From NCBI RefSeq assembly GCF_014203735.1, contig NZ_JACHJQ010000002.1, positions 310,001-374,000 of the forward strand: DNA of 64,000 nt, in the 5' to 3' direction. Below the pieces are notes generated by a model. It did not search any database, was not told the DNA's origin, and worked only from the letters and a program-made list of their open reading frames with translations. Positions 1,091 through 58,878 of this stretch are shown in pieces (position 1 is the stretch's first letter; each line of letters opens with the position of its first letter). Source of the DNA: Actinophytocola algeriensis (lineage in GTDB: Bacteria; Actinomycetota; Actinomycetes; Mycobacteriales; Pseudonocardiaceae). Position numbers and translations under genes: made by a program.

Positions 1091-3282
1091 GACTCGTTCC
1101 TCCTTGTGTACAAGAAAACCGCGATGACCAGCAGGCCGAGCCCAGCACCCGCCTGCCCGAAGTCGATCGGCTTCGCCACCGGCGACAGTTCGACGATCTT
1201 GCCGGTACCGAAGCAGGCGTACTTGCCGCACGTGGGTTCCCTCGGCCCCCGCACCGTCTTCGCCGCCGAGTCCACCGACTGGCTGCCGTCGCTCGCGTGC
1301 GCCCGGACCACGAGCCGGTTGCTGCCTTCCTCGACCCCGATCTGGGCGGAGGTCGCCGAGCAGGCGATCGCCACCGAGTAGCCCTGGGTCGTGTTGACGA
1401 GCTGGCAGCTCCCGTTGTGGCTCGCCCAGTCGCCGGGCGGGCTCAGCGCGACGAGACGGGTGTAGTCCTGCTGCCCGTTCGGCGCCGTGACCGTGCCGAT
1501 GATCACCGCGCCCGCGGCGGGCATGGACGGCGGAGGTGGCGGATCCGGCGGAGGTGGCGGCGCGGGCGGGTTCGTGGTGGTCGGCGCCGGGTTCGTGGTC
1601 GTGGGGTTCGTGGGCGTCGGGTTCGTGGTGGTCGGCGCCGGGGGCTGGGTCGTGGGCTGCGACTGCCGCGGCGGCACGTTCCAGGAGCCGGTGCCCGCGG
1701 TGCCGCGCCCCGCCCGGTTGGTCGCGGTGACGGTGATGTCGAGCCTGCCGTTGTCGCAGAACGTGCTGTCCGCGCACGGGACCGTGAGCCGCGCGCTCGT
1801 CTCCGTGGTCTGCGTGGTCTGGCTGCCGCCGGTGAAGTCGCCGCTCACGACGACCGTGTACGAGGTGATGGGGCCGCCGTTCTCGGTGGGCACGCCCCAG
1901 CTGACGGTGGTGGTCAGCTCGGTGTCGGAGCGGCTGCCGAGCATCGCGGTGATCCCGGGTGGCGCGCCGGGCGCACCGCGGTTCCCACCGCCGGGCTGGG
2001 ACGGTCCGGTGGTGGTGCCGGGTCCTGGCGCTCCGGGTGGCCTCGGCTGGTCCCCGCGGCCACCGGGCCGTGTCGGCTCTTCCGGCCGCGGGCTCGGGCG
2101 CGGCGGGGTGGGCACCTCCGGCATCGGCGGCCGGTCCGGGTTGACGACGGGCAGCTCCGGGCTGCGGATGGTGACCGGCCTGGTGGACCCGTCGGAGTCG
2201 ACGATCACGCCGCGCTCGGCGCCCGGCGCGCTGATGAACAGGCGGCCGTCGTCGAACACCAGCTGTGGGTCCATTCCGCCGGGAGTGGCGATGTCCTGCG
2301 CGGCGCGGCTGCCGGACCGGTCCAGCACGAGCACCTTGCCCGCCCCGAGGCACGGCACGTAGACGCGGTCGCGGAACACGACCGGCCGCCCCGGCCGCGC
2401 ACACCCGAGCGCGGCGACGTCGACCCGCACGACCCGGTCCCCCGCCACCAGCACCACGATCCCCTGCCCCGGCACGGACGCAGGCACGAGCCCGGCCGGA
2501 CTGCTTTGCGCGGCAAGCACTTCCCTCGGCAGCCGCGACGTCGCCCCGGCCACGTCCTGCCCGGTGCCGACCTGGCGGACCACGCCGCCGTCGAGCCCGA
2601 ACAGCGTGACACCCCTGCTGTGCGGGACGAGGACGGTCGCCGGGCCCGCGCCACGCACGACGTCGTCGGACTTCTCGTCGAACGCCTGGTCGTCGTCGGA
2701 CCACTCGAGCGCGTGGAGGTGCCCGTCGTGGTCGACGGCCCACACGGTGCCCTCGTCGTCGACCACCACGTCGGCGAGCGGAAGCCCGGCCCGCCAGGGC
2801 TTGCCGACGTCCACGAGCGTCACGGGATCGGCGTTGGTGATCGTGCCGGCGGCGCGGTCGACCACGTACACCCGGCCCTCGGAGACGAGCACCTTGCTGG
2901 TGGCACCCGGCGGCGCCTGCCGCCGCCCGCTGGCGAGCAACGTCGCGAGGTCGATCACGGTGATCTGCCCGCTCCGCCGGTCGAGCACGACGAGCACGCC
3001 GTCCTTCTGCGTGATCTCCAGCTGTGCGTCACCACCGCTGACCTGCAGCCGCACCTCAGGTCGCCCGGAGGCGGGGTTCACCTGGACGACCTCACCCCTC
3101 GGGTCGTCCGGCAGCCAGGTCAGCCCGTCCGAGACGTCGACCGCCGTCCGCGCCACCCCGGTCCCGAGCACGGCACCGGCGATGAGCAGCACCCCGAGCG
3201 ACGCGGCCCCGAAACTGGCCGAGTCACGCACGCGCCCTCGCGTGCCGAACAAACGCCGGGCAATCCCCTGAAGCACGGCCAT
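1087..3282 (-). CDS. Membrane-anchored fibronectin type III protein
   Basis: This 731-residue protein is predicted to be an extracytoplasmic sensor or scaffold. An N-terminal transmembrane helix (about residues 22-45) is followed by a beta-propeller-like region with repeated DGRLFI/DGVLVV blades (about 50-370). Next come a Pro/Thr/Arg-rich linker, one Fn3 domain (about 430-525), a second Pro/Thr/Asn-rich linker, an Ig-like segment and a C-terminal transmembrane helix ending in TRRNES. It is first in the Fn3-MoxR-DUF58 operon. In actinomycetes such operons often continue with transglutaminase, phosphatase and Ser/Thr-kinase genes, which would lie left of the window. No catalytic motif is visible. 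The ATG at 3282 precedes a typical basic N-terminus. Confidence 0.8.
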   Translation of the reverse strand: MAVLQGIARRLFGTRGRVRDSASFGAASLGVLLIAGAVLGTGVARTAVDVSDGLTWLPDDPRGEVVQVNPASGRPEVRLQVSGGDAQLEITQKDGVLVVLDRRSGQITVIDLATLLASGRRQAPPGATSKVLVSEGRVYVVDRAAGTITNADPVTLVDVGKPWRAGLPLADVVVDDEGTVWAVDHDGHLHALEWSDDDQAFDEKSDDVVRGAGPATVLVPHSRGVTLFGLDGGVVRQVGTGQDVAGATSRLPREVLAAQSSPAGLVPASVPGQGIVVLVAGDRVVRVDVAALGCARPGRPVVFRDRVYVPCLGAGKVLVLDRSGSRAAQDIATPGGMDPQLVFDDGRLFISAPGAERGVIVDSDGSTRPVTIRSPELPVVNPDRPPMPEVPTPPRPSPRPEEPTRPGGRGDQPRPPGAPGPGTTTGPSQPGGGNRGAPGAPPGITAMLGSRSDTELTTTVSWGVPTENGGPITSYTVVVSGDFTGGSQTTQTTETSARLTVPCADSTFCDNGRLDITVTATNRAGRGTAGTGSWNVPPRQSQPTTQPPAPTTTNPTPTNPTTTNPAPTTTNPPAPPPPPDPPPPPSMPAAGAVIIGTVTAPNGQQDYTRLVALSPPGDWASHNGSCQLVNTTQGYSVAIACSATSAQIGVEEGSNRLVVRAHASDGSQSVDSAAKTVRGPREPTCGKYACFGTGKIVELSPVAKPIDFGQAGAGLGLLVIAVFLYTRRNES

Positions 3283-13825: not shown

Positions 13826-14977
13826 ATGGTTCTCATGACCTCCGTCCCTGCCGCCGTTCTCGACCGGATCTCCTCGGTGACGCTCTCGTCGGTGACGCTG
13901 CCACTGCCGACCGGCATCAGCGACGCGAAGGTGCTGACCGGCAGGCAGCGCCCGATGACCGAGGTCGCGTTCCTGTTCGCCGAGATCACCACGGAGGAGG
14001 GCCACCACGGCGTCGGGTTCAGCTACTCGAAGCGTGCCGGCGGCCCCGCCCAGTTCGCCCACGCTCGCGAGGTCGCGCCGGACCTGGTCGGCGAGGACCC
14101 GAGCGACATCGGCAGGCTGTGGACCAAGCTCGTGTGGGCGGGTGCGTCGGTGGGTCGCAGCGGTGCCGCCACGCAGGCCATCGCGGCGATCGACGTGGCG
14201 CTGTGGGACCTCAAGGCCAGGCGCGCCGGCCTGCCGCTCGCGAAGCTGCTCGGCGCGCACCGCGACTCGGTGCGCTGCTACAACACCTCCGGCGGGTTCC
14301 TGCACGAGACGATCGAGCAGGTCAAGGACAACGCGACGCGCACGCTGGCGGCCGGCGTCGGCGGCATCAAGATCAAGGTCGGGCAGCCGGACTGGCGTGA
14401 GGACCTGCGCCGCGTCGCCGCGGTCCGCGAGCACATCGGCCCGGACGTGCCGCTGATGGTGGACGCGAACCAGCAGTGGGACCGGCCGACGGCCATGCGG
14501 GTGAGCAAGGCCCTCGAGGAGTTCGACCTGGTGTGGATCGAGGAACCGCTCGACGCGTACGACGCGGAAGGGCACGCCGAACTGGCCCGCTCGCTCACGA
14601 CGGCGGTCGCGACCGGCGAGATGCTGACCAGCGTGGCCGAGCACCACGAGCTGCTCCGCCACCGCGCGGTCGACATCCTGCAGCCGGACGCGCCGCGCAT
14701 CGGTGGCATCACCCAGTTCCTGAAGCTCGCGACGCTCGCCGAGCACGCCGGTGTCGGCCTGGCGCCGCACTTCGCGATGGAGATCCACGTCCACCTGGCG
14801 GCCGCGTACCCGGCCGAGCCGTGGGTGGAGCACTTCGACTGGCTGTACCCGCTGTTCAACGAGCGCCTGGAGATCGGCGGCGGGCGGATGCACCTGTCCG
14901 GCAGGCCGGGGCTCGGCATCACACTGTCCGCGCAGGCTCGCGAGTGGACGGTCGACTCGGTGACCGTCAAGGCGTGA
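13826..14977 (+). CDS. L-talarate/galactarate dehydratase (enolase superfamily)
   Basis: A 383-residue mandelate-racemase-type dehydratase expected to convert galactarate or L-talarate into 5-keto-4-deoxyglucarate. The N-terminal capping block ISDAKVLTGRQRPMTE and FSYSKRAGGP are hallmarks of the TalrD/GalrD group. The barrel carries the KxK base pair (K182, K184), metal ligands D213, E239 and E265, and a His at 315 (APHFAMEIH). A second ATG three codons in (13835) is an equally possible start; no strong ribosome-binding site precedes either. Divergent tctCBA supplies the likely substrate. Its TGA is the first element of the 137-bp repeat that follows. Confidence 0.87.
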   Translation: MVLMTSVPAAVLDRISSVTLSSVTLPLPTGISDAKVLTGRQRPMTEVAFLFAEITTEEGHHGVGFSYSKRAGGPAQFAHAREVAPDLVGEDPSDIGRLWTKLVWAGASVGRSGAATQAIAAIDVALWDLKARRAGLPLAKLLGAHRDSVRCYNTSGGFLHETIEQVKDNATRTLAAGVGGIKIKVGQPDWREDLRRVAAVREHIGPDVPLMVDANQQWDRPTAMRVSKALEEFDLVWIEEPLDAYDAEGHAELARSLTTAVATGEMLTSVAEHHELLRHRAVDILQPDAPRIGGITQFLKLATLAEHAGVGLAPHFAMEIHVHLAAAYPAEPWVEHFDWLYPLFNERLEIGGGRMHLSGRPGLGITLSAQAREWTVDSVTVKA

Positions 14978-15248
14978 ACGCGGGAGCGGAACGACGGAGC
15001 GGGCGCCGTCTGGACTGACGAGCACGGCGGTTCCTGCGCGAGGAACGAGCCCAGGGGCCGCCGCGCGCAGGAGGGAAGACGGTGTCTCAGCGGAGGAGTG
15101 CAGCGACCCATTGAACACGGGAGCGGAACGACGGAGCGGGCGCCGTCTGGACTGACGAGCACGGCGGTTCCTGCGCGAGGAACGAGCCCAGGGGCCGCCG
15201 CGCGCAGGAGGGAAGATGGTGTCTCAGCGGAGGAGTGCGGCGACCCAG
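14975..15248 (+). repeat. 137-bp structured repeat, two tandem copies
   Basis: Copy 1 is 14975-15111 and copy 2 is 15112-15248, identical but for a handful of positions. Each folds on paper into a long stem: 15001-15010 pairs with 15078-15087 and 15138-15147 with 15215-15224. The loop holds the conserved strings GGACTGACGAGC and GGAGGGAAG, plus nested hairpins (CGGCGG with CCGCCG, GTTCCT with AGGAAC). The single stem difference, C15080 to T15217, keeps a G-U pair. The 3' end contains GGAGGAG, which serves as ribosome-binding site for the next gene. A diverged third copy lies at 58741-58860. Confidence 0.9.
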
Positions 15249-16174
15249 TGAACACGGTACTCGTCGGCTTCGGGGCGCTCGTCCTCGTCATCGCGGTCGG
15301 CTGGGTCGCCGGGCGGGTGCGGGTGCTCGGTGACGGCGCGTCGGAGGTGCTGTCGCGCCTCTCGTACTTCGTCGCCACCCCCGCCTTGCTGCTGCTCACG
15401 CTGGCCGGTGCCGACCCCGGTGTGCTGGTCTCCCCCGCGCTCGTGGCGACCGCGGGCAGCGCCGTGCTGTGCGCGCTGCTGTACGCCGTGGTGGCGCGGT
15501 GGCGGTGGCGGGCACGGCCCGCGGAGCTGGCCACCGGCGGCCTCGCGTCTTCATATGTGAACGCGGGCAACCTGGGCGTACCCATCGCGGTGTACGTGCT
15601 CGGCGACGCGTCGTACGTCGCGCCGGTGCTGCTGTTCCAGGTGCTCGTGCTGGCGCCCGTCGGACTGACCGTGCTGGCGGGTTCGCGGGCGGAGTCACCG
15701 TCCAGGGTCCGGCTGCTGACCCAGCCGCTGCGGACGCCGGTGGTGCTCGGCTGCGCGCTGGGCCTGCTGGTGGCGGCACTGGGTGTGCGGCTGCCTTCCC
15801 TCGTGCTGCAACCGATCGAACTGCTCGCCGCGCTCGCGGTGCCCGCCGCGCTGCTGGCGTACGGCATGAGCCTGCACGGCGCGCCCCGCCCCGCGTCCGG
15901 CGACGGCGCGAGCCGGGTGTGGCTCGCGGTCGCGCTGAAGACGGTCGCGCAGCCCGTGCTGGCGTACGTCCTCGGGCGGTGGGTGGCGGGCGTGGAGGGG
16001 ACGGCGCTGCTGGCGGTGGTGATCACGTCGGCACTGCCCACCGCGCAGAACGTGTTCGTGTACGCGACCGCCTACGACCGGGGCACCCGCCTGGCGCGGG
16101 ACGTGGTGCTGCTGTCCACCGTGCTGTCGGCGCCGGTCCTGGTCGGGGTGGCCGTGCTGCTGGGGGCGTCATGA
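15248..16174 (+). CDS. AEC-family (auxin efflux carrier-like) transporter
   Basis: A 308-residue membrane protein with about ten helices in two inverted halves. The family-typical broken-helix glycine/asparagine motifs are visible: ASSYVNAGNLGVPIAVYVLG (about residues 98-117) and the later VITSALPTAQNVFVYATAY. Bacterial AEC members move organic acids such as malonate or malate. The GTG at 15248 is the last base of repeat copy 2 plus two bases; GGAGGAG within the repeat is its ribosome-binding site. The TGA overlaps the mqo ATG by four bases. Context suggests uptake or efflux of an acid handled by the neighbouring oxidoreductases. Confidence 0.88.
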   Translation: MNTVLVGFGALVLVIAVGWVAGRVRVLGDGASEVLSRLSYFVATPALLLLTLAGADPGVLVSPALVATAGSAVLCALLYAVVARWRWRARPAELATGGLASSYVNAGNLGVPIAVYVLGDASYVAPVLLFQVLVLAPVGLTVLAGSRAESPSRVRLLTQPLRTPVVLGCALGLLVAALGVRLPSLVLQPIELLAALAVPAALLAYGMSLHGAPRPASGDGASRVWLAVALKTVAQPVLAYVLGRWVAGVEGTALLAVVITSALPTAQNVFVYATAYDRGTRLARDVVLLSTVLSAPVLVGVAVLLGAS

Positions 16175-20208: not shown

Positions 20209-20265
20209 GGGCCTTGTGCTGCCCACCGCGGGCCGCTCCGGGCTCCCGGGTCGGAGCAAAGGAAA

Positions 20266-20310
20266 ACCCTGCGGTGCTGCCAGGTCGGGGGTCCGCCAGC
20301 ACCGCAGGGT
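20266..20310. terminator. Bidirectional hairpin between convergent genes
   Basis: ACCCTGCGGTGCTG (20266-20279) and CAGCACCGCAGGGT (20297-20310) form a perfect 14-bp stem around a 17-base loop. The hairpin lies between the ends of the ACT-GNAT gene and the PA14/DUF1080 gene and probably terminates both. The other bases of 20209-20402 show nothing further. Confidence 0.8.
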
Positions 20311-20402
20311 CACTCACCTCATCGCACCGGCCCCCGGTGTCGTTACACCGGTCCGGCAGTCATGCGAAGTGTGAATTCCTGATCACTCCACGCACCGGTG
20401 GT

Positions 20403-57505: not shown

Positions 57506-58878
57506 CGGCTCTGCAGCAACGGATCGGCCTGCTTCCGGATCTCCGCGAGGACCTCGTCGAGCGGCACGCCGTCCTCGAAGGCCCGTTCCAGCTGGGTGCC
57601 GATCACGTCCTCGACCTCCGGCCACGACGGCGTCACCGGCGTGTGCCGCAGGTGCGGGATGGCGTCGAGGAACACCTGCGACGACGCGGGCGCGCGGGCC
57701 GGACTGAGGAACGCGGGCGACGTCGCCACGGAACGCAGCGACGGCACCGTGCGACCGCCGAGCGCGGTGAGCGTCTGCCCCTGCTGCCCGACGGCGTAGG
57801 CGACGAACTTCGCCGCGGCGGCGGCGTTCTCCGACCCACTCGCCACGCAGTAGGCGTCGGAGTGCAGCACCGACACCGGCTCACCCATGACCGGCAGGCC
57901 CGCGACGTCGAAGTCCAGGCCGCGCTGCTCCCGCAACGCCGGGACTTCCACCCGCGAGCTGAGGAACATCGCGACCTTCCCCGTCATGAACTGCTCGGGC
58001 AGTCCCTGCGCGGCGAGCTGCTCCTTGTCCGGGGTCGCGCCGCTGCCGATGAGGTCCACAACGGACTGCAGTGCGGCGCGAGCGCCGGGCTCGTGGAGGG
58101 TGGTGCGGGTCGGGGCCGCGTCGTCGTCGACGATGGTGCCGCCGTTGCTCCAGACCAACGGGGCCATGCGGACGATCGACGGGTCGATGCCGACCCCCTT
58201 CACCCCGTCCCGCGTCAGGGCCCCGGCCGTCGCCACGAAGTCGGCCCACGACCAGTCCGCCTTCGGGGCCGGCACGCCCGCCTGCGTGAACAGCGCGCGG
58301 TTCCAGTAGACGACGAGCGAGGAGATGTTCTGCGGCATGCACTGCAGCGCACCGTCGTAGGTGAACGCCCGCAACGGCTCCTCGTAGTAGTCGGCCGTGT
58401 CGACGCCCGCGTCCGCGAGCAGCGGGCCGATCGGCCGCACGGCGCCGCGCTGCACGAACGGCGCGTACTCGCGGTAGTTGATCAGGAAGACGTCCGGCGC
58501 GTCGCCGGACGCGAACGCGGTGGAGAGCCGGGTGAGGTGGTCGTCGCGGCTCACCGGGACGAGTTCGACCTCGCCGCCACCGGCCTCCTCGTAGGCGGAC
58601 ACGAGGCTGCGGTAGACGGCGGCCTCCTCCGGGTCGGCCCCGACCTGCACGGTGATCGGCGCGGTCGGGCTCCCCTCATCCGCGCCTGCGCCGTCGGAGC
58701 AGGCGCTCAGCACGAGGAGCACGGGGATCGCGAGCAATGTGAGCAGGAGCGACGGAGCGTGCGCTGTCCGGACTGACGAGCGCGCGCAGGCGCGAGGGAC
58801 GAGCGCCGAGCACGCGAGGAGGGAAGACAGCGTGCTAGTGGAGGAGCGACGCGAACCATCGGGCACTGTGTGTCTCAT
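57502..58878 (-). CDS. ABC solute-binding lipoprotein with repeat-derived N-terminal extension
   Basis: A 458-residue family 1 binding protein. The usual lipoprotein signal LLAIPVLLVLSAC lies at about residues 47-60 instead of at the start. The first 45 residues are encoded by a copy of the 137-bp repeat family on the opposite strand (58741-58860). The ATG at 58878 is favoured because it overlaps the upstream permease TGA (ATGA); no better start exists between it and the signal core. The mature fold has VQVGADPEEAAVYRSLVSAY, APDVFLINYREYAPF, PQNISSLVVYWNRALF and PVMGEPVSVLHSDAYCVA. Substrate: sugar or glycerol-phosphate type. Confidence 0.85.
   Translation of the reverse strand: MRHTVPDGSRRSSTSTLSSLLACSALVPRACARSSVRTAHAPSLLLTLLAIPVLLVLSACSDGAGADEGSPTAPITVQVGADPEEAAVYRSLVSAYEEAGGGEVELVPVSRDDHLTRLSTAFASGDAPDVFLINYREYAPFVQRGAVRPIGPLLADAGVDTADYYEEPLRAFTYDGALQCMPQNISSLVVYWNRALFTQAGVPAPKADWSWADFVATAGALTRDGVKGVGIDPSIVRMAPLVWSNGGTIVDDDAAPTRTTLHEPGARAALQSVVDLIGSGATPDKEQLAAQGLPEQFMTGKVAMFLSSRVEVPALREQRGLDFDVAGLPVMGEPVSVLHSDAYCVASGSENAAAAAKFVAYAVGQQGQTLTALGGRTVPSLRSVATSPAFLSPARAPASSQVFLDAIPHLRHTPVTPSWPEVEDVIGTQLERAFEDGVPLDEVLAEIRKQADPLLQSR
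58741..58860 (+). repeat. Diverged third copy of the structured repeat
   Basis: Aligned with 14983-15111: GACGGAGCG, GGACTGACGAGC, GAGGAGGGAAGAC and GGAGGAG are shared in order. The central part is shorter by about ten bases and diverged. The stem GTGCGCTGTC (58761-58770) with GACAGCGTGC (58828-58837) differs from copy 1 in both arms yet pairs fully. The element is antisense inside the lipoprotein gene's 5' end. Confidence 0.85.

What the first reader, a model, noticed from the sequence alone, without database searches (positions are those of the whole stretch)
14975..15248. Dispersed structured repeat with compensatory base changes
Two tandem 137-base copies here and one diverged copy at 58741-58860 keep the same order of blocks (GACGGAGCG, GGACTGACGAGC, GGAGGGAAGAC, GGAGGAG). 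The outer 10-bp stem is preserved although its sequence changes. Between copies 1 and 3, stem position 7 goes C-G to U-A and position 2 goes G-C to U-G. Three further positions swap G-U and G-C, and copy 2 has a C-to-T that keeps a G-U pair. Covariation on three copies in one window is strong evidence that selection acts on RNA (or cruciform) structure. I know no named RNA class that fits. It could be an actinomycete RNA element, a mobile non-coding repeat or a translation-leader device, since it delivers GGAGGAG to the gene downstream.
Basis: seen in the sequence. Interest (0 to 1): 0.78.

Follow-up and report, generated by a model that had tools for sequence, protein, structure and literature searches.

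The report
Mobile structured repeat in actinomycetes
The window carries three copies of a roughly 110-140-base repeat that inserts between bacterial genes, and although its sequence drifts its folded shape is kept across several groups of actinomycetes, which points to a mobile element whose folded single strand matters.

Summary
It belongs to a large family: at least 31 copies in this genome (Actinophytocola-like) and 4-39 in each of 12 further genomes (eight genera, chosen because each had one copy), but only 2 of 395 other genomes sampled from the phylum. The fold covaries strongly; even a pair inside the "invariant" loop flips C-G to G-C. G-U far exceeds A-C, so one strand is selected. Rfam has no match at its thresholds.

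Four insertion sites were compared with relatives that lack the element. Three, including both sites in this window, are 4-base start/stop overlaps (GTGA, ATGA, GTGA). The fourth is a CTAG stop/stop overlap in one of the two closest relatives but a 115-base gap in the other. The element is therefore mobile and favours tight gene junctions, as mycobacterial MIRUs do, but it has no conserved ORF. No shared neighbour family or U-tract was found, and no Y1 transposase in six Actinophytocola genomes.

Best reading: a non-autonomous, MIRU/ERIC-like mobile repeat whose fold is the recognition signal for an unidentified mobilising factor, and whose 3' end can re-supply a ribosome-binding site. Transcription, catalysis and the mobiliser are untested.

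The parts
14974..14977 (+). GTGA holding the TGA stop (14975-14977) of the upstream MR_MLE/enolase-superfamily gene; left side of the target overlap
   Evidence: the orthologous junction in G005 has a single GTGA and no element
14982..15110 (+). element copy 1 (unit without target)
15002..15010 (+). copy 1 outer stem P2, 5' strand
15011..15077 (+). copy 1 GA-rich core and inner hairpin P3 (TGGACTGACGAGC...GGAGGGAA)
15078..15086 (+). copy 1 outer stem P2, 3' strand
15092..15098 (+). GGAGGAG, RBS-like, copy 1
15119..15247 (+). element copy 2 (tandem, period 137)
15139..15147 (+). copy 2 P2, 5' strand
15148..15214 (+). copy 2 core
15215..15223 (+). copy 2 P2, 3' strand (C to T keeps a G-U pair)
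15229..15235 (+). GGAGGAG, 12 nt before the GTG start of the transporter gene
15248..15251 (+). GTGA holding the GTG start of the downstream Mem_trans gene; right side of the target overlap
58746..58858 (+). element copy 3, antisense to the flanking ABC-transporter genes (permease and solute-binding protein on the - strand)
58760..58768 (+). copy 3 P2, 5' strand
58769..58825 (+). copy 3 core
58826..58834 (+). copy 3 P2, 3' strand
58840..58846 (+). GGAGGAG, copy 3

Best explanation
It is a non-autonomous mobile repeat of actinomycetes, about 110-140 bases, that inserts at junctions where neighbouring genes abut or overlap. Shown: one strand can fold as a long hairpin (outer stem P1 in about half of the copies, stem P2, a conserved helix with room for tandem G-A pairs, a variable hairpin P3), and this pairing is preserved by compensatory change on that strand. 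Shown: it is dispersed, tandemly amplified, patchy between genomes, and present at junctions that in relatives are tight gene overlaps. Inferred: a small GNA-loop hairpin P4 downstream (read from sequence). Inferred: the GA-rich core is the recognition signal of a mobilising factor acting in trans on the single strand (transcript, or ssDNA at the fork). Inferred: the ends (stop codon kept at the left, RBS-like purine run and start codon at the right) let a gene pair go on being expressed, so insertions are tolerated; tandem copies then arise by slippage or recombination.
For: Covariation: 97.0% of 270 cells paired, 7 of 9 P2 pairs with double changes on 30 sequences (30 of 44 candidates). On 122 distinct sequences 229 double-change cells against a shuffled mean of 50.3, 0 of 500 shuffles as high (hits from 100 chosen loci). 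The core pair (alignment columns 21-101, not in the model's structure) is CG 94, GC 22, UA 1, UG 1, none unpaired of 118; in a regex count 80 of 83 pair. Strand: G-U 42 against A-C 6 of 570 cells with no pairing demanded; 6 against 0 in copies antisense to both neighbours. Mobility: at 4 examined sites relatives lack the element, three of them clear 4-base start/stop overlaps; at site 4 G000 and G001 carry different subtypes at the same junction and G005 a 14-base remnant-like stretch. Multi-copy (4-39) in all 12 genomes searched out of 13 asked for, each chosen for having a copy; 2 of 395 other phylum genomes. 126 of 134 sites outside predicted genes. No neighbour family in more than 4 of 140 proteins.
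Against: No mobiliser found: Y1 transposase in 0 of 6 genus genomes, reverse transcriptase in 2 of 6, no split copy with an ORF in its loop recognised in the fetched loci. No clear long target duplication: flank repeats of 9 bases or more in 24% of 122 sites against 16% in mismatched pairs; at site 2 the ATGA is not repeated beyond the element and the solute-binding gene now starts, by my gene finder, at another codon. Site 3 is ambiguous (overlap in G574, 20-base gap in G583, 115-base gap in G591). Site 1 rests on one relative, because in G003 and G004 another gene lies upstream; site 2 also rests on one. One tested core pair (columns 25-98) is only 75% paired, and the outermost P2 pair fails in 27 of 122. 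Orientation towards genes differs between genera. No expression data. The RBS role is sequence and position only; the spacing in the window (12 nt) is longer than usual (recalled).
Confidence: 0.68

Rival explanations
1. The single strand acted upon is DNA: hairpins formed at the replication fork or as a cruciform are cut and joined by a hairpin-recognising recombinase, as in IS200/IS605 or attC-type systems.
For: P4 and many P3 carry GCGNAGC with flanking GA, motifs recalled as very stable in DNA; the G-U over A-C bias also appears in copies antisense to both neighbours (small numbers); G-T wobble is tolerated in DNA as well.
Against: No Y1 (PF01797) protein in 6 of 6 genus genomes searched; other recombinase families and other genera were not tested.
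Confidence: 0.22
2. The core is a catalytic or retro-mobilised RNA: tandem arrays, a near-invariant core and variable stems resemble small ribozyme architectures.
For: Near-invariant two-strand core with variable closing helices; head-to-tail arrays of 2-5.
Against: No Rfam ribozyme above threshold; one Hammerhead_II match overlapping the element in L010 at 19.6 bits (gathering 37, E 7.2). Reverse transcriptase not found in 4 of 6 genus genomes, which have 8-33 copies by the model.
Confidence: 0.08
3. It is a transcription terminator or 3' end stabiliser.
For: Sits between gene ends: >E< 28 against <E> 9; long GC-rich hairpin; in Nocardioides and A. suaedae the right end usually lies close to the stop codon of a facing gene.
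Against: A T-run of 4 or more follows on the element strand in 1 of 184 elements, on the other strand in 5 of 184. Inserted inside operon-like junctions. Patchy and multi-copy, unlike host terminators.
Confidence: 0.1
4. It is a cis-regulatory leader (riboswitch or attenuator) of the downstream gene.
For: RBS-like GGAGGAG before the start codon in the window's subfamily; 38 of 43 tandem-gene sites in Actinophytocola are co-directional.
Against: No shared neighbour function; antisense and convergent placements common; relatives have the same gene pairs without the element.
Confidence: 0.04

Closest known systems
MIRU (mycobacterial interspersed repetitive units)
   Same: Short repeats that appear mobile and insert at start codons of coupled genes (one passage read in PMC12548453, which cites Supply 1997); minisatellite-like tandem copies (abstract start of PMC3635867 in a search listing). 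The 'DTGA' target is recalled.
   Different: No conserved internal ORF coupled to the next gene. Strongly covarying fold across genera; also found between convergent genes and antisense to genes. Sequence kinship with MIRU was not tested.
ERIC (127-bp enterobacterial repeat)
   Same: Similar length, single long stem-loop, intergenic (passages read in PMC2267715).
   Different: Different host phylum; tight gene-junction target; near-invariant GA-rich core kept over nine named genera. ERIC sequence was not compared.
REP/BIME with RAYT transposase
   Same: Palindromic, extragenic; in Nocardioides paired in opposite orientation, BIME-like (title and abstract start of PMC2817692 seen in a search listing).
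   Different: No Y1 transposase in six genus genomes; the unit is about three times longer than the 40 bases listed for PU-BIME in PMC2267715.

Membership tests
MIRU | insertion at overlapping or coupled stop/start junctions | tested here: met
   3 of 4 sites compared with relatives are GTGA/ATGA start/stop overlaps when empty; the fourth is a stop/stop CTAG overlap in one relative and gaps in others
MIRU | internal ORF translationally coupled to the next gene (-4) | tested here: not met
   a frame open through the element ends at the right-hand DTGA in 10 of the 25 sites listed with a DTGA there, and not in the window; core length mod 3 is 1:76, 0:50, 2:21 of 147
MIRU | sequence homology to mycobacterial MIRU | not tested
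   no MIRU sequence was compared
REP/BIME (RAYT) | Y1 transposase (PF01797) in element-rich genomes | tested here: not met
   0 of 6 genus genomes; the control rings in 5 of 14 known genomes; other genera not tested
REP/BIME (RAYT) | units in alternating orientation | tested here: inconclusive
   6 of 134 sites are opposite-strand pairs, all in Nocardioides
ERIC | single long stem-loop, intergenic, about 127 bases | tested here: met
   a resemblance only
ERIC | ERIC sequence | not tested
   no ERIC sequence was compared
Any Rfam 15 family | score at or above the family's gathering score over the elements | tested here: not met
   window at gathering; six element loci at E<=10, none at gathering
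Intrinsic terminator | U-tract after the hairpin | tested here: not met
   T-run of 4 or more in 1 of 184 elements
Riboswitch/leader | consistent neighbouring gene function | tested here: not met
   the largest Pfam families match 4 of 140 neighbours
Group II intron / retroelement | reverse transcriptase in element-bearing genomes | tested here: not met
   PF00078 in 2 of 6 genus genomes

The most novel reading that the evidence does not exclude
An RNA-driven mobile element: the transcript of the repeat, through its GA-rich core, is the active agent (catalytic, or bound by a host RNA-processing or integrating enzyme). It inserts into tight gene junctions as a portable intercistronic linker that brings its own ribosome-binding site and start codon. 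This would be a mobile-element class defined by a conserved RNA fold rather than by a transposase and terminal repeats.
Probability: 0.12. Interest if true: 0.9.

Novelty: new variant of a known kind. Interest (0 to 1): 0.62.

Why it matters
As far as I recall, dispersed bacterial repeats such as ERIC or MIRU are confined to narrow host groups and their mobilisers are often unknown. Here one fold with a near-invariant core occurs in nine named actinomycete genera. That gives a comparative handle (covariation, strand bias, empty sites, a junction hit by two subtypes) for asking what recognises such elements. It also suggests how an insertion can enter a 4-base gene overlap without silencing either gene, and yields a covariance model for annotating what is now blank intergenic sequence.

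Tried and rejected
Rfam at gathering (window) and at E<=10 on six loci: nothing at a gathering score over the elements. Viral contigs with the exact pattern: 0. Phages with the window's pair: 0. Plasmids with a Nocardioides pair: one 37-base match at 89% in Natrononativus, judged incidental, not followed. Y1 transposase and reverse transcriptase as mobiliser in the genus: not supported. Copies whose loop holds an ORF: none recognised; the 19 left and 10 right 'halves' look like variant, truncated or locus-end copies. Long target duplications: much of the excess comes from adjacent partial repeats. Conserved ORF: rejected. Terminator: no U-tract. k-turn and hammerhead readings of CUGACGA: considered by eye with recalled criteria and not met. 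Literature: motif strings (two unrelated papers) and searches on repeats in Actinophytocola, Nocardioides and generic terms listed no description of this element; the library lacks most subscription papers, so this is no proof that it is unpublished.

Caveats on counts. One search's 134 sites leave out duplicates and elements too near a locus end; 16 have a gene on one side only; 8 fall 'inside' a predicted gene and were not resolved; 6 are opposite-strand pairs; 104 remain for orientation. Gene calls come from my own codon-usage finder, not an annotation. Alignment A3 used 30 of the 44 candidates; A6 used 100 chosen loci, and its rows were selected by a model that contains P2. Model counts per genome are lower bounds (12, 33 or 150 candidates scored), and the large surveys used stricter filters. 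Binomial tests treat related copies as independent; the reverse orientation bias in A. suaedae plus Nocardioides (12 against 4) is not significant (P 0.077). Five family-level model hits at E 2.6e-4 to 8.1e-4 are not counted as members. The exact pattern also gave one match in G008 (no model hit there), and its reversed control one match in G026; both are taken as chance. Stop codons at the 27 junctions are TGA in 25, but the genomes' general use of TGA was not measured.

Full report
What was checked. Copies 1 and 2 (window 14982-15110, 15119-15247) are a tandem pair of period 137, 133/137 identical. Copy 3 (58746-58858) is a diverged relative.

Family size and spread. The genome holding the window (G000) has 13 exact-pattern copies (0 for the reversed control) and 31 by covariance model. 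Exact-pattern counts in the six genus genomes G000-G005 are 13, 4, 66, 3, 0 and 25; model counts are 31, 19, 33, 8, 18 and 33 (33 candidates scored per genome, so a ceiling). Of 13 such genomes asked for, 12 were held and each has 4-39 copies; they were chosen because each had at least one. In a phylum sample 3 of 396 genomes match at E<=1e-5, one being the window's own. In the family 13 of 150 match at E<=1e-3: six Actinophytocola, two others below 1e-5 and five weak ones. So the element is multi-copy where present and not found in most genomes sampled.

Anatomy. From outside in: P1 (36 of 77 non-redundant copies have a helix of 9 or more pairs against 5.6% of mismatched flanks; none comparable is seen by eye in the window's subfamily), P2 (9-10 pairs), the two conserved strands UGGACUGACGAGC and GAGGAGGGAA, and a variable inner hairpin P3; downstream a small hairpin P4 of the form CGAGCGNAGCGAG, read from sequence. 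The conserved strands are not an open loop. The base pair joining their middles changes from C-G to G-C and U-A in concert (sequences: CG 94, GC 22, UA 1, UG 1, no mismatch among 118 cells; by regex: CG 62, GC 17, TA 1 and 3 mismatches of 83), and a neighbouring U-G becomes C-G or U-A. A further proposed pair (columns 25-98) holds in only 75%. With the supported pairs fixed, the remaining letters fall into place as tandem G-A pairs; that part is inference.

Selection on one strand. On 30 motif-selected sequences P2 is 97.0% paired with double changes in 7 of 9 pairs. On 122 distinct model-selected sequences the 14-pair structure is 95.3% paired and has 229 double-change cells against a shuffled mean of 50.3; sliding the partners by 1-3 columns destroys the signal. 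With no pairing demanded, 57 distinct flank pairs give Watson-Crick 464, G-U 42, A-C 6 and other 58 of 570 cells, 37 of the 'other' at the outermost position. The G-U over A-C excess marks the strand as written as the selected one. It also appears in copies antisense to both neighbours (6 to 0 in 14 copies). The fold is therefore probably not kept for the sake of the host mRNA that it happens to sit in.

Mobility. Four insertion sites were compared with relatives. Site 1 (copies 1 and 2): G005 has the same two genes overlapping by GTGA and no element; in G003 and G004 a different gene lies upstream, so they do not inform. Site 2 (copy 3): G004 has the two ABC-transporter genes overlapping by ATGA and no element; in G000 the ATGA is kept on the permease side only and the solute-binding gene starts at a different codon. 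Site 3 (A. suaedae, L112): none of eight relatives read shows an element; the convergent genes overlap at CTAG in G574, are 20 bases apart in G583 and 115 apart in G591, and other relatives have other neighbours or arrangements. Site 4 (L201): G002, G003 and G004 have a GTGA overlap; G000 has one subtype; G001 has an array of another subtype at the same junction; G005 has a 14-base stretch resembling the element's right end. At site 4 the downstream start codon reads ATG in the carriers and GTG in the three empty species, so the element appears to bring its own start codon, preceded by GGAGGAG. At the 27 co-directional junctions the upstream stop is TGA in 25.

Setting. Of 134 sites, 126 are outside predicted genes. 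In Actinophytocola tandem-gene junctions the element is co-directional in 38 of 43 (P 2.5e-7, copies treated as independent). In A. suaedae and Nocardioides it is more often antisense (12 against 4, P 0.077, not significant), usually with its right end close to the stop codon of a facing gene. Promoter-type intervals are rarer (<E> 9 against >E< 28). Neighbouring proteins (140 of 173 eligible scanned) share no family in more than 4 cases. There is no U-tract (1 of 184) and no conserved ORF.

Mechanism. Committed reading: a non-autonomous mobile repeat. A trans-acting factor recognises the folded single strand through the GA-rich core and inserts it at tight gene junctions; the ends preserve the stop of one gene and renew the RBS and start of the next. 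Shown: fold, strand, dispersal, empty sites, junction type at three sites. Inferred: the factor, the RNA or DNA nature of the intermediate, and the expression benefit. Against a RAYT or retro route: no Y1 transposase in 6 of 6 genus genomes, reverse transcriptase in only 2 of 6, and no ORF-bearing version recognised.

Comparison. It works like MIRU at the level of target and layout (one passage of PMC12548453 read) and like ERIC at the level of a single long hairpin (passages of PMC2267715 read). It fails the MIRU internal-ORF feature and the RAYT feature of REPs. Homology to MIRU or ERIC was not tested. Hence: new variant of a known kind. No description was found in the searches listed, which cover only the held library.

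Noticed in passing
window 20260-20316 (-): Rfam F6 TB sRNA (RF01791), 61.7 bits against a gathering score of 46: a known actinobacterial sRNA.
   Followed up: no
L069, L092, L110, L117, L120, L154 (Nocardioides): Pairs of elements in opposite orientation with their 5' ends facing, at similar spacing, five of six between convergent genes: BIME-like composites.
   Followed up: partly
L269 1135-1425 and L266 (site 4): The same gene junction carries different element subtypes in two species and a short remnant-like stretch in a third: an insertion hotspot or replacement.
   Followed up: partly
L100 4686-5090 (Actinomadura parmotrematis): Interlocked, apparently chimeric copies sharing half-motifs in one array.
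   Followed up: no
window 15098-16174 (+): An open frame runs from copy 1 through copy 2 into the transporter gene, so automatic annotation could mis-call its start.
   Followed up: no
L007 near 1401-1443 (-): A second tandem copy runs into a stretch of N; copies also lie at contig ends in G002, so copy numbers in draft genomes are probably underestimates.
   Followed up: no
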